55,288 bases of DNA from Candidatus Omnitrophota bacterium (GCA_017992455.1 JAGOOP010000011.1:1-55288); one strand, 5' to 3'. Shown: positions 920 through 48,796, counted from the stretch's first letter. Numbers and translations: made by a program. Notes: a model not told the origin generated them from the letters alone.

Positions 920-2797
920 ATGCATACCCATGATGTCATTGTCGTCGGAGCAGGCCATGCCGGCATCGAAGCGGCTTTGGCTGCGAGCCGTATGGGCTGT
1001 TCCACGCTTATGGTGAACCTGCGGCTCGACACTATCGGCCACATGTCCTGCAATCCCGCTATCGGCGGCGTCGGCAAGGGCCAGCTTGTCAAGGAGATCG
1101 ACGCGCTCGGCGGAGAAATGGCAAAAGCGGCTGACGCCTGCGGCATGCAATTCCGCATCCTGAACGCTTCGAAAGGCGCAGCGGTGCAATCCTCGCGCGC
1201 GCAGATAGACCGCAGTCTGTATATACGGTATATGACCCGCGCGGTCAAAGCACAGAAGAACCTTGCGTTCAAGCAGGCAGAGGTCGCCGGGCTCGTTGTC
1301 GAAGATACCACCGTGCTCGGGGTTGTGCTTGAGGGAGGGACGGAACTCCGGGCCGCATGCGTTGTGTTATGCCCCGGCACGTTCCTGGCCGGACTGATGC
1401 ATGTCGGCCTGCAGTCTCATCCGGGCGGCAGGCAGGGCGAGCGCGCGTGCACGGCGCTCACCGATGACCTGAAAGGCCTCGGATTCGGTCTTTTGCGGTT
1501 CAAAACAGGCACCTGCCCCCGGCTTGATACAAAAAGCATCGATCACAGCCGGCTGATCGTGCAGGAAGGCGACCGGCCTCCAAAACCCTTCTCGTTCTCC
1601 ACGAAGCGTCTGAAACAGCGCCAGATCCCCTGTCATATTACCTATACGAACAAACAAACGCATCAGATCATCCTTGATAATCTTGATAAATCCCCGCTGT
1701 TCACGGGTAAAATACTTTCGACCGGCGTTCGGTACTGCCCGTCCATCGAGGACAAGATCGTGCGTTTCGGGGACAAAGAGCGCCATCAGATATTTCTCGA
1801 GCCCGAAGGGTATCATACGGATCAGGTATATCCCAACGGCCTTTCGACGAGCCTGCCTGAAAACGTGCAGCTTGCCATACTCCATTCCATCAAAGGCCTC
1901 GAGCGCGCAAAAGTCCTGCGGTTCGGCTACGGCATCGAGCATACCGTCGTCGAGCCAACGCAGATATTCCCTTCGCTTGAGACAAAGCGCATCAGGAATC
2001 TTTTTACCGCAGGCCAGATCAACGGCACGACCGGTTATGAGGAAGCGGCCGCGCAGGGGCTGATCGCGGGCATCAATGCGGCTCTGCGCGCGAAGAAGAG
2101 GGAACTGCTCGTGCTTGACCGCGCAAGCAGTTATATCGGCGTGCTGATCGACGACCTGACCACGAAAGGGACGAATGAGCCGTATCGCATGTTCACCTCG
2201 CGCGTCGAATACCGGCTCGTGCTGCGGGAGGATAATGCCGATATACGGCTCGCAGAACACGGATATGCCGCAGGGCTCGTTTCAAAGGCGCATTTCGAGC
2301 GGGTCAGGAAGAAAGCCCGGGGAATAAAAAAAGCCATAGCATTTTTTCACAAACACCCGGTCAAGCAGTCGCCGGCTGTGGCGAAATACCTGGCAGGGTT
2401 GAAAAGCTCGCCTTTGAAGAAGAGAACGACGCTTGCGGACCTTCTCAGGCGGCCGGAGATCACGTATCCTTTGCTTGCGCGCATTCCCGGCGTTTGCCTT
2501 GATCTGCCTGCAGCTGTTGCGCAGCAGGCCGAGATCGATATAAAATACTCCGGTTTCATCGAGCGCCAGCGTGCCGAGGTGGACAAATTCGAGCATCTGG
2601 AAAAGATACGATTGCCGTTGGAACTTGATTACGCGGCCATCCCCGGCATATCGCGGGAGATCGGAGAGAAATTAAAATCGTTCAAACCCGTGAACCTCGG
2701 ACAGGCGTCGCGCATCTCGGGCGTTACGCCTGCGGCAATATCGATACTTATGGTGTATTTAAGGAAGATCAATGCAAAAGACCACAACAAACAATAA
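920..2797 (+). CDS. mnmG: tRNA uridine-5-carboxymethylaminomethyl(34) synthesis enzyme MnmG
   Basis: FAD-dependent partner of MnmE; it installs the (carboxymethyl)aminomethyl group on U34 of tRNAs reading split codon boxes. The 625-residue length is normal for the family. Seen: the Rossmann FAD motif GAGHAG at residues 10-15, the signature CNPAIGGVGKGQ (from Cys44) followed by LVKEIDALGG, and TGYEEAAAQG in the FAD-binding C-terminal half. The C-terminal helical domain for MnmE contact is present and full length. The ATG follows directly on a strong promoter without a ribosome-binding site. The last 26 bp overlap the next gene. mnmE is not in the window. Confidence 0.97.
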   Translation: MHTHDVIVVGAGHAGIEAALAASRMGCSTLMVNLRLDTIGHMSCNPAIGGVGKGQLVKEIDALGGEMAKAADACGMQFRILNASKGAAVQSSRAQIDRSLYIRYMTRAVKAQKNLAFKQAEVAGLVVEDTTVLGVVLEGGTELRAACVVLCPGTFLAGLMHVGLQSHPGGRQGERACTALTDDLKGLGFGLLRFKTGTCPRLDTKSIDHSRLIVQEGDRPPKPFSFSTKRLKQRQIPCHITYTNKQTHQIILDNLDKSPLFTGKILSTGVRYCPSIEDKIVRFGDKERHQIFLEPEGYHTDQVYPNGLSTSLPENVQLAILHSIKGLERAKVLRFGYGIEHTVVEPTQIFPSLETKRIRNLFTAGQINGTTGYEEAAAQGLIAGINAALRAKKRELLVLDRASSYIGVLIDDLTTKGTNEPYRMFTSRVEYRLVLREDNADIRLAEHGYAAGLVSKAHFERVRKKARGIKKAIAFFHKHPVKQSPAVAKYLAGLKSSPLKKRTTLADLLRRPEITYPLLARIPGVCLDLPAAVAQQAEIDIKYSGFIERQRAEVDKFEHLEKIRLPLELDYAAIPGISREIGEKLKSFKPVNLGQASRISGVTPAAISILMVYLRKINAKDHNKQ

Positions 2798-3482
2798 GGC
2801 ATTGCGCACATTGAGCAAAGGGCTGGGCCTGGATCTTTTCGGCGTTGCGGACATCGCCCATGTCAAATCCGGCTTTGCCTTATCAAAGGATGTGATTGCC
2901 CGGGTCAGGTATGCCATTGTGGCGGGAACGCGCCTTTCATCTGCAGTCCTTGCGGAAATACATCAGGAACCGACCAGATTGTATTCGCATCATTATAAAA
3001 CAGCCAATACCTTCCTTGACCTGTGCGCGTTCAGGATGTCCAACTATATCCAGGACAAGGGGTTTTATGCCTTGCCGATCCCGGCCTCACAGCTTCTTGA
3101 TTGGAAAAGGCAGACAGCGCATCTGTCGCATAAGCACCTGGGCGTTCTGGCAGGACTGGGCTGGATCGGCAGGAATAATCTGCTGGTGACGAGGGAATTC
3201 GGCGCACAAATCCGGCTTGTCACGGTCCTGACCGATATGCCCTTGATGGCTGATACGCCGGTCAAAGAAGATTGTGGACAATGCCGTGCGTGTGTAGTAC
3301 TATGTCCTGCGGGGGCCATAAAAGAGTGCTCCGGCGATTTTGATCACCGCGCCTGTTTTGAAAAGCTTCAGGCTTTTGAAAAGAGCAATACGGTCAATCA
3401 GTATATCTGCGGCGTGTGCGTCAATGTCTGCAAAGGCCGCAGGCTCAGCATATGCAGATCCTCGAAGAACAAACATCGGTAA
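2772..3482 (+). CDS. QueG-like iron-sulfur protein (epoxyqueuosine reductase-related)
   Basis: 236 residues, shorter than true QueG (about 310-380). Residues 115-160 (HLSHKHLGVLAGLGWIGRNN and LVTVLTDMPL) are typical of the QueG/double-cluster family. Two [4Fe-4S] ligand sets are visible: C168/171/174/178 in CGQCRACVVLCP and C213/216/220 in CGVCVNVC, the fourth ligand of the second cluster being a possible C195. QueG proper needs cobalamin; its DUF1730 N-terminal region looks shortened here. The gene overlaps mnmG by 26 bp, so the two are co-translated, which suggests a tRNA or redox role but does not prove it. Could instead be a related reductase of unknown substrate, as often found in anaerobes. 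Confidence 0.75.
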   Translation: MQKTTTNNKALRTLSKGLGLDLFGVADIAHVKSGFALSKDVIARVRYAIVAGTRLSSAVLAEIHQEPTRLYSHHYKTANTFLDLCAFRMSNYIQDKGFYALPIPASQLLDWKRQTAHLSHKHLGVLAGLGWIGRNNLLVTREFGAQIRLVTVLTDMPLMADTPVKEDCGQCRACVVLCPAGAIKECSGDFDHRACFEKLQAFEKSNTVNQYICGVCVNVCKGRRLSICRSSKNKHR

Positions 3483-12560: not shown

Positions 12561-12686
12561 GGGCTAAAAACGGGGTCAGAATTATTTATTTGAGATCGAC
12601 AGAAAGCATGGGGACGGTTCTCTTTGAGAACCGTCCCCATGCTTTCCATCGCGGCAAATAAATAATTCTGACCCCGTTTTTAGCCC
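12561..12686. repeat. Nested double hairpin: family A arms enclosing a family B hairpin
   Basis: Outer arms 12561-12592 and 12655-12686 form a perfect 32-bp inverted repeat of family A. Where other copies have a 19-nt loop, this one holds a second perfect 21-bp hairpin of family B (12602-12622 with 12626-12646, loop TTT; core GGGACGGTTCTC). The left junction AGATCGACAG is shared with the partial copy at 48.7 kb. It fills most of the space between phoU and the nadE promoter. Confidence 0.95.
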
Positions 12687-21272: not shown

Positions 21273-21320
21273 ATTAAGAATTGCCACGGTTCTTAATGAA
21301 TGGGAGATTAAGCCGTGGCA
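21273..21320 (+). promoter_or_regulatory. Possible pseudoknot over the start codon of the giant gene
   Basis: Stem 1: ATTAAGAA (21273-21280) with TTCTTAAT (21290-21297). Its 9-nt loop holds TGCCACGG (21282-21289), which is fully complementary to CCGTGGCA (21313-21320), the segment containing the GTG start codon (21315-21317). The ribosome-binding site GGGAG (21302-21306) lies in the strand joining the stems. Another hairpin (CCTGAG...CTCAGG) occurs just upstream. Confidence 0.5.
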
Positions 21321-24300
21321 TTTTTATTTGCGCAAAAGAACGACTTTATCAAAGCGTTTAGGCGGATTATCGCCTTCATTATCATATTAAGTTTCATTTT
21401 CGAACAGCTTGGCATTGCTCAGGTAATCCCCCAGATTCCCAATCCAGCCGATCCCAATTCTCTTTTCATTTCTTCTGACAAGTTCCGTCCTATTCATTTA
21501 CGATCGATCGACTACCAGGATGCAGCGCGCAGTTTTAGCGTCATGCTTGATAAGGGCGATGTCAAAGAAGCAAAGCAGGCTGAAACTGAGCAGGCTGTCC
21601 GGGATATGATGACGTATTTTTTTATCGGCGTGCGGCTGCCGAATTCTTCTTTCTGGGTCAACCTGCGGCCTGATTCTCCCGAACGCATCATCGACGCTCG
21701 CCTCGCTCAGACAGATATCGGCAGGATCATGCTCGCCGCCGATGTGCAGTTGAAAAAAGACCTTGCCGCCTATACGTCGCCGAAAACCAAAGAGGGAAAG
21801 GCATACTGGGATAAGCTGTATAAGAAAGCCGAAGAATTATTCGGCAGCGAAGATATTTCCATCCCTACGATGACCAGGCCGTGGATCGTGCCTGACGAGA
21901 TCATCCTGCGCGACGCAGGCACAAGCGCCTATATTTACAAAGCTACGCTTAAAGTCCTTCTCGAGGCTGATCATCTGAGGAACGGGCCCGCAATTCAGTC
22001 CGCTGACCCCCGCATTAAAACGCTGAATGACTATTCCTCGCAGATCATCAAGGAATCCATCCTTCCGAAACTCTCAAAAGACGTCAATATCTCAAGGCGA
22101 TACGCGCCGCTGCGCCAGGTCTATTACTCGTTGATCCTCGCGCAATGGTTCAAATCCAGGAACATGGGCATTGATAAGAGCATAGACCAGAAGGACCTTG
22201 CCGGGCTTATGTCGAACACTGCCTGGGATAAAGGCGTGTATTTCAAGCAGTATCAGGATTCATTCCAAAAAGGAGAATACGATCTGCAGGAAACCGTGCG
22301 GACGCCGTTTGGCCAGACTATCAGGCAGTATTTCTCTGGCGGCATACAGCTCGGCGTTCAGAACAAGGAGGCGCCCACGCCTTCGGTTTTGTCGATCGCC
22401 GCAGATGGCGGGATCAGGCTGTCTGCCGTAAAGGGGTCTGAACGCGCGCTTGTCACAGCGCATGACAAAGGTTTCACGATCCAGCTTCTGCATGACGACA
22501 TCGCCCAGGGCGTCCAAGACGGGGATATTGTCATGCCCCATGGACCCCTGCGCGACGATTACTCGATGTTCCAGCAAGGCCTTGATTGGACGAATACGCG
22601 CATCCAGGCAGAAACGCCTGTGTATCTTCTCAAGGCATTCATGGATATCTATGAGCAGTGCCGGATCATGGTGCTTGGCCCGGGAGCCGGGACCGAATTA
22701 AGTCATATAGACGATATCGCGCAGGAACAGGGGCGTCAGGTCGAGGTTGATACCATCAGCTTGAGCCCGTTGCCTCTGCGGTTCAGGCTTGAGTTAGATT
22801 CGGCAAACCTCTGGGAACAGGTTAAGGCCTATACCAAAGCCGGTTTTTCTCTGGCCGGACTGGAAGAGTATTATGCGCTGCTTTCCGACCGGGAAATCGG
22901 CGATATCACAAGGATCAACCGCGCCGAATTCAACCGCGCGCTCAGGCACGGCGAGCACGAAAAGATCCCCATGAGCGTCATTCCTCCTTTGCAGAACGCA
23001 GGGTTTCATATTTACAGCCGATTGCCCACGCCGCATATCCATCGCCAATATATCATGCCCTTGACTGATATCCTGTCCGGAGGGTTCGGAATACAAAAAA
23101 GGTATCATATTGTTCTCGATAATCACGGAGGCTTTTATTATACGGTCATGACAGAAGGGTTGGACGAAGCGGTTCGCGCCGTCGATATGCTGCTTGCGCC
23201 GGATGGCGTATTTTATGCGCGTGTTGTCCCCTGGATGAAAGAGGAACTGGATGAGTTCGAATTTCCCGGGCTTGTGATATTTGTTACGTCCGAAGAGCTG
23301 CTGAGAAAGCGGATCGAAGAGCCGCTCAGGACGCTGATCGTGAGGAAAGACAGCCTGCATATGCGGCGTCTTGCCGGGTGTTCGGGTGTGCGGCAGGTAT
23401 CGGATGGTATGTATCGGGTTGACAATATGGATAAGTTTGTCAAAAAGTTTATCCCGGCAAAATCGGGGGCGGCCATTCGCAAGGGTTTATCTACAGTCGT
23501 GGCAGATAACAATCCTTCCCATGGCGCCCCCGTTCCTTTGCCGTCTCACGCGCGGTCGCATAAAGACGGCGGAACGCTGTCCATCCCTCACACCGCTTTT
23601 AATTTCGCAGATCAGCTTCCCCTCGGGTGGCAATCGAGCATGAGGCGGGAATACTACGATCACCAGGAGCATCGGCAACTTGCTCAAGACCACATGGAAG
23701 CGTTGTCTCAGTTCGGTATTCAACTACAGATGAAGATGGCGAATACGTTCCCTGCCCGCGCTGAAAGTGTCGGGCCGGTGGCGCTCAATCCGGCATGCGG
23801 AGGGGATGTTATGTTGTTCGGCCTGAGAGCGATCACGGATATTATCGGCATTGATGTTCAGCCTTTCGGGCCTCCGGCAAGGATCATTGCGCCGCAGCGC
23901 ACGGTGAATCCCTCCATAAAAGCCCGGTATTACGCAATGGGGACTGATGCAATGGAAACGCTTATGGCCTTGCCTGAAACAGGCAATCTCATCGTGGAAA
24001 GGATCCTCATAGGATTGAACGCGGCTGTTACCGGCATTTATTATTTTACGCTTAACGACGCGGGTAAGATGTCTTTTATTGAATCGCCCGGCATGAAAGG
24101 AACTGTTGGCTTCGGCAATGCGGTTGTCGAATTCAAGGATGAAAACGGCCTGACAAAGCGCTACTGGTATATCCGGCAGGACCTTAACCGGCGCAGCAAA
24201 GCCCTGCGATCGTTCCTGGAGCAGACAACTTTCCAATCGCTCGTCTTGAAAGGCGCGTTCGACATGTTCAACCCGGATTCGCCTTTATTTCCGGATCATG

Positions 24301-27300
24301 ACAATCTGATCCAAACGATCCTGGAGCCTGCCAGGCGCCATTCAGCCTGGGTGATCCATGATGAAAGCCGCGACGGCAATCCCTATAAAATGTGGCAGGA
24401 GCAGTTTAAACCGTATCATGTCCAGAGGACGCCGGTCAGGCTGCGATCTGGAATGATTGTAAAACCTTTCTTCGGCCTGTCAGAAAAAAATGTATTCTGG
24501 GGCCCGGCGGACTATCTTAAAACTTCGTCGCATCAACGGCACCGCGGCGAATATTACGAAATTTTCTGCAGAGAGATGAGCCGGATCAACCCGGACAAGA
24601 CGGACATTGATTATCAACTTGAATTTGATAGGTGGATGTTCCGACATTACCGGTTGATCGTCCCGGAACCAGGCCCGGACGATAGCATGGTTTTTGCTGA
24701 TATGCTCAAACACCCTCCCGAGCCGGAGAGCCTCAATGACACGGAGCTGTATCTGGCCTTTCAGAATGCCTTCTGGAGCCGCGCTTTTACGCAGTTGAAA
24801 TGGGATTTCTATCTTTTCGGACACTTTGGATTCGGTCAATACCCGAAGATCCTCCACAAGCTTCTAGAACCGGAAGCGAAAGCAGCCATAAAACAAGACA
24901 GGGAGCTTTTGAAGCTCTATTATAAATCAGGAGCGCAGGCGTTCCGGCGCATAGCGCAGATCGAGGCAAGCCTTGCGGATGAAATGTTCGCGCGTTTTGC
25001 CAAAAGGCCGGAAGCGGTCCGAAAGATCGTCGAATATCTGCACGACCGCAACATCCCCATACTCGATTCGGTCCTGAACAGGCTTCTGGGCATCAGGGAT
25101 TACGAGCTTGAAGAGACGTTGAGCCCCGGGATAGAGTCGTCTGCGGCGTATCAGTCAGAAGACCATTTCTACCAAGGGACTCCGTATGAGTTTATTCGGC
25201 AGATCCTCAGGCACGTGGAGCCCACATCCTCCGATGTTCTGGTCGATCTTGGTTCCGGATACGGCAGAATGGTCATCTACGCCGCGCTGGCGACGAGGAT
25301 CAAAAAAGCCATAGGCATTGAACTGGTGGCTGAGCGGGCCTCTGTGAGCAGCCGGACCGCAGAGGAACTTGGCCTGGCAAATGTCGAATTCCAAAACAGC
25401 CATGTCAAAGACGCTGATATACAGGACGGGACCGTGTTCTATTTGTTCAATCCTTTTTCAGACGAAACATTCGCGCTTGCCATGGATAAATTGCGTGAGG
25501 TGGCCAGGACCAGGAAGATCACCATGATCTTCTGGCAGTGCAATGAGGCCGAGCTTGCCCGATGCACATGGATGAAACTGGTCAAGACCGTGCCGTATCG
25601 CTCATATACAGCCTATATATACGAAGCTGATCCCTTACTTGCGAAGGAGGTTGACGCGCGTCAGGCCCGTCAGCGCGACGGCGGGAATACGGATGTGTTC
25701 ATCTCTGATCCTGATCAGGTTGCTACATTGCGCGATGTATGTGAGGTCATTGAGCGCAGTGTGCAAGGCAATTCGTTGCCCGGGGATCCCGTTGTGATTT
25801 CCTCAGGCAGAGGGTCTGAAAGCGCCGTGTATCGCGTGGCTGGTTACGACCGCGTTGTATTTAAGGTGATGGATGAGGATCTGAGCGAATACCGTTTTAA
25901 CATCCAGACGGATAATCTGTCCCGGATCGCTGGGGCAAACGGCTATACCCGTGTCCCGTTCGACAAATTCGACCTCGTTTCTATTGCGCATATTGCGCCG
26001 TTCGCGTATTGTTCATTGCAGAATGCGAGCGGCAAGCGGATACGCATGGTTGTTCAGCAAAAAGCCGTTATGCCGCTCGAGCGCGATGAGCTCGATGCGT
26101 TAAAGGCGGATCTGAAACGGGCAGGCATAACCTGGGTGGATGCAGGGCCCAGGAACGCAGCCATGATCGAGTCCGAGCATGGAGGGCAGACAACGCGCAT
26201 GCCTGTTGTCATCGATCTCGGCGGACTTTTCTTCAAAGACGCGACCGCCCAATTGATCGAGATGCTTTTTAACGCGCCTGAGGCCGATGATCGCCATTCC
26301 GCCGCGAGCGCCCTGTGGGCTCAAGATCCTGAGCGTGTCCCTGTTCAGGTAATGGACGCCTTGAAGAAAGCGTCGAACTCGGAAAAGGACCCGTTTGCCA
26401 GATCAGTCATCAAGGCGATTCTGCGCAGCGCCTCAATGGGTCAAGACAGCGCGCAAAGCCAACAGAATTTTTACACTCAGCCCCGTCAGGACGGAAAGCA
26501 CATATTCGAACTCTGGCAGGAAAAGGCCGATGTCGGTTCGTCGATAACTCCTGCGGTATATGACGACGGTTATAGAGCAAACATGGTCCGGTTGATCAAA
26601 AGCGTAACGCGGGAAAACAAGGACGCGGCCATACTTTCCATAGGCTCAGGCATCGCATTTGTGGAAGAGATCCTCGCCAGCGACGGTTACCGGAATATAA
26701 CGGCGGTTGATATACACAGAGAGGCAGCGGAAATCGCCCGGAGCAAGGGATTGGAATCTTTTGTCGCTACGGGCGAGTCGCTCCCCATAGGAAGCTCTTC
26801 GCAGGATGTCGTGTATCTGGACGGCGCTTTAGGGCATATGGCTGCTTCGTTCAAGGCTCCGTATGATAATTGTTTTCAGCAGCCGCTTCGCGAGGTGTCC
26901 AGGGTCCTGAAGGATACAGGATTGGTTGTGATCAGCGACGATGTTCCTGCAGAAGGCAGCGATTATGAACTCAATCCCCGGGTGGAATTGTTACGGGTGA
27001 GCGATACGGTGATCGCGCAAGAACTCAAGAATGCGGGTTTTAAGGTCTTCGATATACAGTTTTTTTCATACCTCAGGCCCGGCATCGGAGAGGTCAAGAG
27101 AAGGGTCGTTGTTGCTCAAAAAGCGGACTTTGCCCCTCAGGATGTCGCCGGCATCGATTTCATCGGCCTGCAGGCAGCGCAGACGCAATCCATGGCCGGG
27201 CCGCTTTCCGCCAGGATCCTGACATGCCTGGGACAAAGTGTGCCAGTTCCCATTTCCGCTGACCTCAGCCAGGAGTGGTTGAAAATAGAACAGGCCATAA

Positions 27301-27494
27301 ACGCCGGGACGATTCCGGCAGTCAGCAGCATGGAAGGCTATGTTAAGGCATGCTGCCAGTCAGAACGCATTGCCGCAGAACGTAATAAAGTGCTCCTCGC
27401 ATTGGCAGCGATCCTGCGCCTTCAGGAAGACCTCTATATTCCTACAGAGCCCCGGTTGAAAGAATTGCTTGTCCTCCTTGAGTCTCCTGTTTAA
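21315..27494 (+). CDS. Giant multidomain protein with several methyltransferase-like folds and a kinase-like segment
   Basis: 2,059 residues, GTG start (GGGAG 8 nt upstream; starting later would lose the hydrophobic helix at 16-36, a signal peptide or membrane anchor). Residues about 40-350 form an alpha-rich region with TRPWIVPDEIILRD, which I associate with Omnitrophota giant proteins. Rossmann-type segments: about 445-680 (VLGPGAGTE, G455/457/459), about 780-1000 (NPACGGD; weak), about 1290-1440 (VDLGSGYGR, DOT1-like, D1311) and about 1740-1945 (SIGSGIAFVE, then AVDIH; Methyltransf_11-like). Between the last two, residues about 1490-1640 resemble a protein/aminoglycoside kinase fold (K1517, D1609, N1614, D1634). 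Substrates are unknown. Monocistronic; a family B hairpin overlaps its stop codon. Confidence 0.85.
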   Translation: MAFLFAQKNDFIKAFRRIIAFIIILSFIFEQLGIAQVIPQIPNPADPNSLFISSDKFRPIHLRSIDYQDAARSFSVMLDKGDVKEAKQAETEQAVRDMMTYFFIGVRLPNSSFWVNLRPDSPERIIDARLAQTDIGRIMLAADVQLKKDLAAYTSPKTKEGKAYWDKLYKKAEELFGSEDISIPTMTRPWIVPDEIILRDAGTSAYIYKATLKVLLEADHLRNGPAIQSADPRIKTLNDYSSQIIKESILPKLSKDVNISRRYAPLRQVYYSLILAQWFKSRNMGIDKSIDQKDLAGLMSNTAWDKGVYFKQYQDSFQKGEYDLQETVRTPFGQTIRQYFSGGIQLGVQNKEAPTPSVLSIAADGGIRLSAVKGSERALVTAHDKGFTIQLLHDDIAQGVQDGDIVMPHGPLRDDYSMFQQGLDWTNTRIQAETPVYLLKAFMDIYEQCRIMVLGPGAGTELSHIDDIAQEQGRQVEVDTISLSPLPLRFRLELDSANLWEQVKAYTKAGFSLAGLEEYYALLSDREIGDITRINRAEFNRALRHGEHEKIPMSVIPPLQNAGFHIYSRLPTPHIHRQYIMPLTDILSGGFGIQKRYHIVLDNHGGFYYTVMTEGLDEAVRAVDMLLAPDGVFYARVVPWMKEELDEFEFPGLVIFVTSEELLRKRIEEPLRTLIVRKDSLHMRRLAGCSGVRQVSDGMYRVDNMDKFVKKFIPAKSGAAIRKGLSTVVADNNPSHGAPVPLPSHARSHKDGGTLSIPHTAFNFADQLPLGWQSSMRREYYDHQEHRQLAQDHMEALSQFGIQLQMKMANTFPARAESVGPVALNPACGGDVMLFGLRAITDIIGIDVQPFGPPARIIAPQRTVNPSIKARYYAMGTDAMETLMALPETGNLIVERILIGLNAAVTGIYYFTLNDAGKMSFIESPGMKGTVGFGNAVVEFKDENGLTKRYWYIRQDLNRRSKALRSFLEQTTFQSLVLKGAFDMFNPDSPLFPDHDNLIQTILEPARRHSAWVIHDESRDGNPYKMWQEQFKPYHVQRTPVRLRSGMIVKPFFGLSEKNVFWGPADYLKTSSHQRHRGEYYEIFCREMSRINPDKTDIDYQLEFDRWMFRHYRLIVPEPGPDDSMVFADMLKHPPEPESLNDTELYLAFQNAFWSRAFTQLKWDFYLFGHFGFGQYPKILHKLLEPEAKAAIKQDRELLKLYYKSGAQAFRRIAQIEASLADEMFARFAKRPEAVRKIVEYLHDRNIPILDSVLNRLLGIRDYELEETLSPGIESSAAYQSEDHFYQGTPYEFIRQILRHVEPTSSDVLVDLGSGYGRMVIYAALATRIKKAIGIELVAERASVSSRTAEELGLANVEFQNSHVKDADIQDGTVFYLFNPFSDETFALAMDKLREVARTRKITMIFWQCNEAELARCTWMKLVKTVPYRSYTAYIYEADPLLAKEVDARQARQRDGGNTDVFISDPDQVATLRDVCEVIERSVQGNSLPGDPVVISSGRGSESAVYRVAGYDRVVFKVMDEDLSEYRFNIQTDNLSRIAGANGYTRVPFDKFDLVSIAHIAPFAYCSLQNASGKRIRMVVQQKAVMPLERDELDALKADLKRAGITWVDAGPRNAAMIESEHGGQTTRMPVVIDLGGLFFKDATAQLIEMLFNAPEADDRHSAASALWAQDPERVPVQVMDALKKASNSEKDPFARSVIKAILRSASMGQDSAQSQQNFYTQPRQDGKHIFELWQEKADVGSSITPAVYDDGYRANMVRLIKSVTRENKDAAILSIGSGIAFVEEILASDGYRNITAVDIHREAAEIARSKGLESFVATGESLPIGSSSQDVVYLDGALGHMAASFKAPYDNCFQQPLREVSRVLKDTGLVVISDDVPAEGSDYELNPRVELLRVSDTVIAQELKNAGFKVFDIQFFSYLRPGIGEVKRRVVVAQKADFAPQDVAGIDFIGLQAAQTQSMAGPLSARILTCLGQSVPVPISADLSQEWLKIEQAINAGTIPAVSSMEGYVKACCQSERIAAERNKVLLALAAILRLQEDLYIPTEPRLKELLVLLESPV

Positions 27495-27568
27495 AATCAT
27501 AGGGACGGTTCTCCTTCCTCCTTCGGAGAACCGTCCCTATGATTTTGGAGAACCGTCCCTATGATTTT
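27493..27568. repeat. Hairpin repeat, family B, with right arm duplicated
   Basis: Perfect 22-bp arms 27493-27514 and 27525-27546 (core AGGGACGGTTCTCC) with a 10-nt loop, followed at once by a second exact copy of the right arm (27547-27568). The repeat overlaps the TAA of the giant gene and ends just before the -35 box of the next promoter. Confidence 0.93.
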
Positions 27569-33238: not shown

Positions 33239-34462
33239 ATGAAGATACTGATATTAAATTCAGGTTCGTCATCCATAAAATACCAGTTGTTCGAGATGCC
33301 CGAAGGGACGGTTATCGCGCGGGGCCTTCTGGAAAAGATAGGCGAGGAAACATCGATATTCAGCCAGAAGAGCGCACACGGCGGCCTCGAGCTCAAGAAG
33401 GCGGTCCCGGATCACGATGAAGGGGTCAATTTCATCATCGGCATGCTTACGGACCCGCAGCACGGTGTCATTTCGTCCGTCAGCGAGATCTCAGGCATCG
33501 GCCACCGCGTCGTGCACGGCGGGGAGGAGTTCACCGCGTCCGTGATCATTTCCGACGATGTGATCGAAAAGATCAAGAAATACGCCGACCTCGCCCCGCT
33601 CCATAATCCTCCGAACCTCATGGGCATCATGGCCTGCCGCAAGCTTTTGCCGTCGGCGCTTCAGGTCGCGTGTTTTGATACCGCATTCCATCACAGCATT
33701 CCTGCGCATGCCTATCTGTACGCTATACCCTACGGCCTGTATAAGAAGTTCGGCATCCGGCGCTACGGATTCCACGGCACCTCGCATCTCTATGTTGCAA
33801 AGCGGCTTGCAGCCCTGTTGAATACGGAGAAGGAGAAGCTTAATATCATCACCTGCCACCTGGGCAACGGGTGCAGTATTACCGCGGTCGAAAAAGGCAT
33901 GTCCGTTGACACGAGCATGGGATTTACCCCGCTCGAAGGCCTGGTCATGGGCACCCGGTCGGGCGATATAGACCCCGCGATCCTTTTTTATCTCAACGGC
34001 AAAGGGTATTCGTGCGAAGAGCTCAATAATCTTTTGAACAAGAAAAGCGGCCTGCTGGGCATATCCGAGCTCAGCAACGATATGCGCAACCTTGTCGAGG
34101 CGAAAATGCGCGGCGATATGCGCGCGCAGATCGCCATCGACATATTTTGCTACCGTATCAGGAAATACATCGGCTCGTATATGGCGGTCCTCGGAACGAC
34201 CGACGCGATCGTGTTCACGGGCGGCATCGGCGAGAACAACGCGATGATCCGCGCCGAATCCCTGCGCGGGATGCAGGCGCTCGGCGTCGAACTCGATGCC
34301 GGCCGCAACGAGTCGGTTCAGCGGTCGGAAGCCCGGATCAGCACGGATTCGTCCCGCGTCAAGGTATATGTCATCCCGACGAATGAAGAATTGCAGATCG
34401 CCTATGATACGTATGCGATAAGCCAGAGAATTGTGGGGTCAGCCCCCATCAACAGGAGATAG
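33239..34462 (+). CDS. ackA: Acetate kinase
   Basis: Makes ATP and acetate from acetyl phosphate and ADP. 407 residues. Motifs: ILNSGSSSIKYQL (residues 4-16; Asn for substrate), GHRVVHGG, FDTAFHHSIP, RRYGFHGTSH, THLGNG-type TCHLGNGCSIT, DTSMGFTPLEGLVMGTRSGDID and VFTGGIGENN. All active-site blocks are present. The C terminus (IVGSAPINRR) is read from a GGGGTCAG-type repeat at 34434. No phosphotransacetylase gene is in the window. nfnA starts 1 nt after the stop with AGGAG overlapping the ackA end. Confidence 0.97.
   Translation: MKILILNSGSSSIKYQLFEMPEGTVIARGLLEKIGEETSIFSQKSAHGGLELKKAVPDHDEGVNFIIGMLTDPQHGVISSVSEISGIGHRVVHGGEEFTASVIISDDVIEKIKKYADLAPLHNPPNLMGIMACRKLLPSALQVACFDTAFHHSIPAHAYLYAIPYGLYKKFGIRRYGFHGTSHLYVAKRLAALLNTEKEKLNIITCHLGNGCSITAVEKGMSVDTSMGFTPLEGLVMGTRSGDIDPAILFYLNGKGYSCEELNNLLNKKSGLLGISELSNDMRNLVEAKMRGDMRAQIAIDIFCYRIRKYIGSYMAVLGTTDAIVFTGGIGENNAMIRAESLRGMQALGVELDAGRNESVQRSEARISTDSSRVKVYVIPTNEELQIAYDTYAISQRIVGSAPINRR
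34434..34448. repeat. Short GGGGTCAG-type repeat at the ackA 3' end
   Basis: TGGGGTCAGCCCCCA, a near-palindrome sharing GGGGTCAG with the family A arms, inside the last codons of ackA. It encodes part of the protein's tail. Confidence 0.5.
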
Positions 34463-42204: not shown

Positions 42205-42298
42205 AACATAGGGACGGTTCTCATTTCCGAAACATAGGGACGGTTCTCATTTCCCAGTTATTCCGCTCGCGGGGAAATGAGAACCGTCCCTAAGTTTT
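42203..42298. repeat. Family B hairpin with left arm duplicated in tandem
   Basis: Two exact tandem 26-bp copies (42203-42228, 42229-42254; core CATAGGGACGGTTCTCATTT) followed by an 18-nt spacer and one inverted copy (42273-42298, two mismatches at its outer end). Overlaps the hydA stop codon and ends 15 nt before the next ATG, leaving AAGGAGG free. May end the hyd transcript. Confidence 0.93.
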
Positions 42299-48744: not shown

Positions 48745-48796
48745 GATCGACAGAAAACATAGGGACGGTTCTCTTCGAGAACCGTCCCTATGTTTT
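48712..48796. repeat. Partial nested hairpin: family A left arm plus complete family B hairpin
   Basis: Family A left arm (48712-48743), the junction AGATCGACAG, then a perfect 20-bp family B hairpin (48754-48773 with 48777-48796, loop TTC) followed by a T-run. It is the left two thirds of the nested element at 12561, without the right outer arm. Provides the stop codon of the GGDEF-like gene and may act as its terminator. Confidence 0.93.

What the first reader, a model, noticed from the sequence alone, without database searches (positions are those of the whole stretch)
21315..27494. 2,059-residue anchored protein with several methyltransferase-like folds
One N-terminal hydrophobic helix and then at least three convincing SAM-binding-type glycine motifs (about residues 455, 1313 and 1777) and a fourth weaker one (about 825), separated by long unrecognised regions. 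The third looks like DOT1, the last like Methyltransf_11. A single chain with several different class I methyltransferase folds behind a secretion or anchor signal is hard to explain: SAM is cytoplasmic. Either the helix is an anchor with a cytoplasmic body, or the folds bind something else.
Basis: partly seen in the sequence, partly recalled or inferred. Interest (0 to 1): 0.66.

Follow-up and report, generated by a model that had tools for sequence, protein, structure and literature searches.

The report
Capped modular exported proteins of Omnitrophota
This large protein belongs to a big, apparently undescribed family in Omnitrophota bacteria in which the same exported front end and the same tail enclose a different set of borrowed enzyme-like domains each time, up to about 70 copies per genome, possibly tools used on neighbouring cells.

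Summary
The 2,059-residue ORF is real. Two methyltransferase domains are clear (DOT1-like ~1283-1396, Methyltransf_11 ~1773-1874). The ~455 one is a diverged methyltransferase fold that has lost the ribose-binding acid. The weak ~825 one is not supported. The larger finding is the architecture. Residues 1-345 are a constant N-cap: a Sec-type signal (12-residue core, A35|Q36) and a compact domain with no Pfam, PDB or BFVD relative. Residues 1944-2059 are a constant C-cap (GGID...). Seven other proteins of the same genome carry both caps, yet no body-to-body similarity exists between any of them. The N-cap occurs in 129 of 368 Omnitrophota genomes, all in one class, with 49-69 copies in each of three genomes. 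Body modules recur separately in other giants or as stand-alone enzymes. They are joined by a recurrent linker, [KRA]DGG here and SSP/SSSA-type in other lineages. DGG linkers never fall inside a recognised domain (0 of 65). Many modules keep catalytic residues. Charge bias and signal geometry argue for an exported body, not a cytoplasmic one. Best reading: Sec-exported, module-shuffling multi-enzyme proteins acting outside the cell. Delivery into prey or host cells, where SAM is available, is inferred and not shown.

The parts
21315..27494 (+). whole two-capped modular ORF, 2,059 aa, GTG start, stop included
21315..21419 (+). Sec-type signal peptide, residues 1-35: K/R n-region, 12-residue hydrophobic core, EQLGIA|Q site
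   Evidence: family alignment and signal statistics
21315..22349 (+). N-cap, residues 1-345: constant in the family; AF2 pLDDT 87; no Pfam, PDB or BFVD relative
22404..22412 (+). linker ADGG (D364) just after the N-cap
22437..23519 (+). module MT1, residues ~375-735: diverged methyltransferase-like fold (LGPGAG 454, LAPDGVFY 627), ribose-binding acid replaced by S482
23565..23573 (+). linker KDGG (D751)
23685..24584 (+). module MT2, residues ~791-1090: unknown fold, shared with six other giant ORFs; methyltransferase not supported
24927..25634 (+). DOT1-like methyltransferase module, residues ~1205-1440 (DLGSGYGR 1311, E1336, NPF 1379); relatives are stand-alone 225-265 aa proteins and other giants
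25677..25685 (+). linker RDGG (D1455)
25782..26354 (+). possible protein-kinase-like module, residues ~1490-1680 (G-rich loop 1498, K1517, D1609/N1614, D1634); by eye plus one homologue, no profile support
26577..27059 (+). Methyltransf_11 module, residues ~1755-1915 (motif I partly degenerate SIGSGIA, D1799 kept)
27144..27494 (+). C-cap, residues 1944-2059 plus stop: GIDF marker and helical-looking tail, shared by capped proteins

Best explanation
It is one member of a large paralogous family of Sec-exported, two-capped modular proteins in one class of Omnitrophota. The N-cap (signal peptide plus a conserved domain with no known relative) and the C-cap (GGID tail) are constant. The body is a changing string of modules derived from ordinary cytosolic enzymes (here methyltransferases and a possible kinase-like fold), joined by a standard short linker. 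The signal takes the chain across the inner membrane, and the caps probably sort or hold it at the cell surface. The modules act outside the producing cell, most plausibly on or inside a contacted prey or host cell, whose cytosol supplies SAM and similar cofactors. Shown: caps, linkers, module reuse, signal geometry. Inferred: export, surface sorting, action on other cells.
For: N-cap and C-cap shared by paralogues with unrelated bodies: every BLAST alignment among eight capped proteins of the genome lies in a cap. N-cap found in 129 of 368 Omnitrophota genomes, and in 69, 57 and 49 copies in three genomes. Modules found separately in other giants and as stand-alone enzymes. Linker DGG 43 observed vs 4.9 expected in capped bodies and 38 vs 3.8 in the >14,085-aa ORF; other lineages use SSP/SSSA-type linkers. 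0 of 65 DGG inside a recognised domain, p 2e-5. Signal peptide geometry and charge bias. Catalytic residues kept in DOT1-like, phosphohexomutase, calcineurin-type phosphatase, HD, GNAT and histidine-kinase-type ATPase modules. Omnitrophota are described as likely predators or symbionts with giant ORFs (PMC10066038), and their gigantic proteins with methylases were proposed as prey-directed (PMC12419801).
Against: No experiment and no dedicated signal-peptide predictor was run. No machinery for transfer into other cells was identified for these proteins. Some modules are degenerate: MT1 acid lost, the TIM module in the 14-kaa ORF lacks its catalytic Glu. About half of the capped bodies match no Pfam family, so their chemistry is unknown. 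The closest match to this body covers a single module, so selection on it could not be measured.
Confidence: 0.45

Rival explanations
1. Exported polyprotein: linkers are protease sites, and the chain is cut outside or in the periplasm into separate small enzymes; caps serve only targeting.
For: Standard short linker between modules and, in several paralogues, a last DGG just before the GGID C-cap. Double-glycine shape, and the genome's only C39 double-glycine peptidase domain lies inside another ~14.5-kaa frame.
Against: Other lineages use SSP/SSSA linkers with no GG, so a GG-cutting enzyme cannot be general. Flexible linkers need no cutting. The C39 module was not tested for activity.
Confidence: 0.2
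2. Exported but structural: the modules are re-used folds that bind surfaces, sugars or ligands (adhesion, coat), not active enzymes.
For: MT1 lost the ribose-binding acid. TIM module dead. Many bodies too diverged for Pfam. Coat and adhesin roles were proposed for Omnitrophota giants (PMC10066038).
Against: Phosphohexomutase, calcineurin-type phosphatase, HD, GNAT, ATPase and DOT1-like modules keep catalytic residues, unexpected for pure scaffolds.
Confidence: 0.2
3. Membrane-anchored scaffold with the body in the cytoplasm, holding metabolic or regulatory enzymes together.
For: Cofactors of the modules (SAM, acetyl-CoA, ATP) are cytosolic. Domain families are cytosolic.
Against: Hydrophobic core only 12 residues, [EQ]QxGFA|Q cleavage-type site, and positive n-side in 71 of 73 predict N-in/C-out or cleavage.
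Confidence: 0.1
4. Gene-fusion debris: expansions and fusions under weak selection in small genomes with little present function.
For: Bodies diverge fast and many match nothing. Some matches to the N-cap in other genomes carry in-frame stops.
Against: N-cap has 46 invariant columns across 63 sequences. Long frames stay open over thousands of codons. Linkers and caps are preserved and catalytic residues kept.
Confidence: 0.05

Closest known systems
Giant ORFs of Omnitrophota (Seymour et al. 2023, PMC10066038), including the 39,678-aa protein of Velamenicoccus archaeovorus
   Same: Same phylum; very long modular frames with few annotated domains; proposed role in contact with other cells
   Different: That paper's passages on giant ORFs mention no constant N-cap or C-cap, no linker tokens and no family of dozens of 1-4-kaa paralogues; whether the V. 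archaeovorus protein carries these caps was not tested
Gigantic Omnitrophota proteins with Skillet-clade Lipocone domains (PMC12419801)
   Same: Multi-domain giants mixing methylases, polysaccharide enzymes, kinases and peptidases; proposed prey-directed
   Different: Defined there by a Lipocone domain; no Lipocone assignment was found or tested here, and the passages read do not mention caps
Polymorphic toxin systems (CDI, Rhs, MuF and similar; from general knowledge)
   Same: Constant trafficking region, exchangeable effector-like region, many paralogues per genome
   Different: Here the variable part lies in the middle between two constant caps, holds several modules, and no immunity gene was identified
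Class I SAM methyltransferases (DOT1/aKMT4-like, Methyltransf_11)
   Same: Two modules match at family level with the ribose-binding acid kept
   Different: They sit as modules in an exported chain; nearest relatives of the DOT1-like module are single-domain bacterial proteins, not histone methyltransferases

Membership tests
Class I SAM-dependent methyltransferase (DOT1-like module, ~1205-1440) | Pfam match above curated cut-off, motif I GxGxG, acid at end of beta-2 | tested here: met
   DOT1 41.8 bits vs cut-off 23; DLGSGYG, E1336 and NPF aligned to stand-alone relatives
Class I SAM-dependent methyltransferase (Methyltransf_11 module, ~1755-1915) | Pfam match above curated cut-off, motif I, acid at end of beta-2 | tested here: met
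   47.8 bits vs cut-off 21.2; D1799 kept, motif I partly degenerate SIGSGIA
Class I SAM-dependent methyltransferase (MT1, ~375-735) | Methyltransferase-type fold by profile comparison | tested here: inconclusive
   hhalign 68-75% vs shuffles at most 0.7%, 22% with a smaller alignment; structure model failed
Class I SAM-dependent methyltransferase (MT1, ~375-735) | Acidic ribose-binding residue after beta-2 | tested here: not met
   S482 here; S or G in three homologous copies
Class I SAM-dependent methyltransferase (MT2, ~791-1090) | Profile similarity to methyltransferases | tested here: not met
   0.2-0.8% probability, same as negative controls
Protein-kinase-like fold (~1490-1680) | Gly-rich loop, Lys, D...N and D-x-G motifs plus profile match | tested here: inconclusive
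   Motifs present by eye and in one homologue; no kinase in the PDB profile search
Sec-exported protein | n-region positive, short h-region, SPase I-type site | tested here: met
   12-residue core in 63 of 67, A|Q site, charge bias 71 of 73
Sec-exported protein | Observed cleavage or extracytoplasmic location | not testable with these tools
   needs experiment
Two-capped Omnitrophota family (described here) | N-cap and C-cap both present | tested here: met
Polymorphic toxin system | Variable C-terminal toxin domain with adjacent immunity gene | tested here: not met
   C-terminus is a constant cap; next genes downstream are an OmpA/LysM protein and a PTS EIIA protein

The most novel reading that the evidence does not exclude
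A bacterial 'cassette' export system: up to about 70 paralogues per genome share a signal/N-cap of a new fold and a GGID C-cap and carry interchangeable strings of catalytically intact cytosolic enzymes joined by lineage-specific linker words, delivered into other cells where their cofactors exist.
Probability: 0.25. Interest if true: 0.88.

Novelty: new variant of a known kind. Interest (0 to 1): 0.68.

Why it matters
Omnitrophota giant proteins have been called poorly understood with few annotated domains (PMC10066038). Recognising constant caps and a standard linker turns them into a parsable family: module ends can be called, copies counted and expression tests designed. If exported enzymes that need SAM, acetyl-CoA or ATP act on other cells, this makes the proposed predatory or symbiotic lifestyle directly testable.

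Tried and rejected
Fourth methyltransferase at ~825: rejected by profile comparison. DGG linker as a DNA-level (Chi-like) recombination motif, suggested by strong GAC/GGC codon bias: GACGGCGG lies 62 times in frame, 0 times in other frames and once antisense in the family, and GAC is also favoured before Gly elsewhere (66% of DG[^G] in the family, 88% in other genes, vs 93% in DGG), so it reads as a protein-level motif. DGG hugging domain edges within 25 residues: not significant (11 vs 7.4, p 0.098); only the absence inside domains is. Single-sequence structure model of 372-1100: failed, so no fold search was made on it. Fold search of the N-cap in PDB and BFVD: nothing. Weak penton-protein hits of the N-cap profile (E 0.019 and worse) judged chance. 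Viral-contig search with MT2: alignment not conserved enough.

Full report
What is there. The frame 21315-27494 is intact and codes for 2,059 aa. The window is contig C15 of a 1.67-Mb, 89%-complete genome. All but three of the named records with a close N-cap relative are Omnitrophota MAGs (two say 'bacterium', one 'Thermodesulfovibrionia'), and the genome search places a MAG of that set in the same family as the window's genome.

Methyltransferase claim. Pfam supports two domains above cut-off: DOT1/Methyltransf_31 at ~1283-1396 and Methyltransf_11 at ~1773-1874, with PDB relatives for the first. The ~455 motif is a diverged methyltransferase fold. Copies in another genome align with it over motif I, the region of motif IV and the 'LxxDGVFY' strand. 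Profile comparison gives 68-75% against at most 0.7% for shuffled controls. The acid after beta-2 is replaced in all four copies. The ~825 region belongs to a family found in six other giant ORFs but shows no methyltransferase signal. Residues ~1490-1680 show kinase-like motifs in this protein and in one homologue, without profile support.

The real architecture. Searching the own genome with the protein shows that its first 350 and last 115 residues recur in other long ORFs while the middle does not. In an all-against-all comparison of eight capped paralogues and the >14,085-aa ORF, every alignment at E < 1e-3 falls in the N-cap or the C-cap. N-cap identities are 45-66%. Bodies are unrelated. 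Across the phylum sample the N-cap is in 129 of 368 genomes, all listed as the same class or closer. Three genomes of one family hold 69, 57 and 49 N-cap matches; some of these are at contig ends or fragmentary. Of the related N-capped ORFs with both ends held, many also carry the C-cap.

N-cap. The consensus is a K/R-rich n-region, 12 hydrophobic residues (63 of 67), [EQ]QxGFA|Q, then ~300 residues with 46 invariant columns in 63 sequences. Charge before the core averages +2.9 and after the site -0.5; 71 of 73 are more positive before. This is the geometry of a cleavable Sec signal and predicts that the body is translocated. The AF2 model is confident (pLDDT 87, pTM 0.79). Foldseek finds no PDB or BFVD relative (best E 0.30 and 0.058). 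No Pfam or NCBIfam model matches this region.

C-cap and linkers. The C-cap starts with GGID[FL]RxLP and ends in a helical-looking ~75-residue tail. Between modules, capped proteins of this genome use [KRAM]DGG[TNI]: 43 seen, 4.9 expected. A >14,085-aa ORF on contig C41, open at the contig start, has 38 against 3.8 expected. Its modules include GH94, TIM, ARMT1-like, HATPase, SPase II-like, methyltransferases and RmlD. RmlD is bracketed by DGG 7 residues before and 8 after. None of 65 DGG falls inside a recognised domain (expected 15%, p 2e-5). Other genomes use SSP, ASSPV, SSSA or AASPL instead, so the linker is a lineage-specific 'word'. All GACGGCGG copies on the coding strand are in frame (62 in frame, 0 out of frame), so it is a peptide and not a DNA signal.

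Module reuse. In 384 Omnitrophota genomes the modules of this body are found apart from each other. MT1 is in a 3,349-aa ORF (two copies) and a 1,060-aa ORF of one genome. MT2 is in ORFs of 917-3,970 aa. The DOT1-like module is in a 2,745-aa capped protein and in stand-alone 225-265-aa proteins. Methyltransf_11 is in ORFs up to 15,709 aa and in stand-alone ones. In the 2,745-aa protein the DOT1-like module is followed by a GNAT domain, here by the kinase-like region, so partners differ.

Are the modules alive? The own phosphohexomutase module keeps TGSH, DGDSDR and the phosphate loop. The HATPase module keeps its N and G boxes. The calcineurin-type phosphatase (DIHGD, GDMIDRG, GNHE), two more phosphohexomutases, HD and GNAT modules in other capped proteins look intact. 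A NUDIX module is partly degenerate. The TIM module of the C41 giant has lost its catalytic Glu. Most recognised modules therefore look catalytic, and they belong to cytosolic, cofactor-using families. These calls on catalytic residues are made by eye against known motifs.

Interpretation. Published work describes predatory or symbiotic traits and giant ORFs in Omnitrophota (PMC10066038) and proposes prey-directed roles for giants with methylases (PMC12419801). Delivery is inference. The polyprotein, scaffold and anchor alternatives are listed with their tests. The genome's only C39 (double-glycine) peptidase domain sits in another giant frame. This is a suggestive but weak lead for cutting at DGG, since SSP-type lineages lack the GG.

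Verdict. Its larger meaning is a large two-capped, module-swapping protein family that none of the libraries searched describes. Known kind: Omnitrophota giant modular proteins. New variant: constant caps, linker words and a multi-copy repertoire.

Noticed in passing
G000 contig C41:3-42257 (loci L101, L102, L103, L098): ORF of at least 14,085 aa, open at the contig start, with 38 DGG linkers and GH94, TIM, ARMT1-like, HATPase, HAD, SPase II-like, M54, RmlD and several methyltransferase modules, directly upstream of two capped ORFs.
   Followed up: partly
G000 contig C23:86910-130556 (loci L203, L204, L205): A further giant frame of ~14.5 kaa, open at the contig end, with a different N-terminal signal and the genome's only Peptidase_C39 domain (catalytic Cys and His visible).
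   Followed up: partly
window 27501-27560, 12610-12638, 33304-33316, 42210-42291, 48761-48789: Repeated 13-mer AGGGACGGTTCTC, mostly in inverted pairs: 11 matches with up to 1 mismatch vs 0.04 expected; one group lies just after this ORF. REP-like palindromic elements are likely.
   Followed up: no
L144 and L191 (genome G337), C-terminal ends: Other giants end in a different C-cap that also begins with GGID (GGIDL...GLTPVI..I.P), so GGID may be a general mark between body and tail.
   Followed up: no
L144:1759-11805, modules at residues ~2400-3021: Two tandem copies of the MT1 module in one 3,349-aa ORF.
   Followed up: partly
Genomes G087, G102, G215, G292 and others: Some N-cap matches contain one or two in-frame stop codons, suggesting decayed copies, sequencing errors or recoding.
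   Followed up: no
L186, L187 (IMG/VR contigs): The N-cap occurs in two contigs filed as viral, which are probably misfiled Omnitrophota DNA.
   Followed up: no
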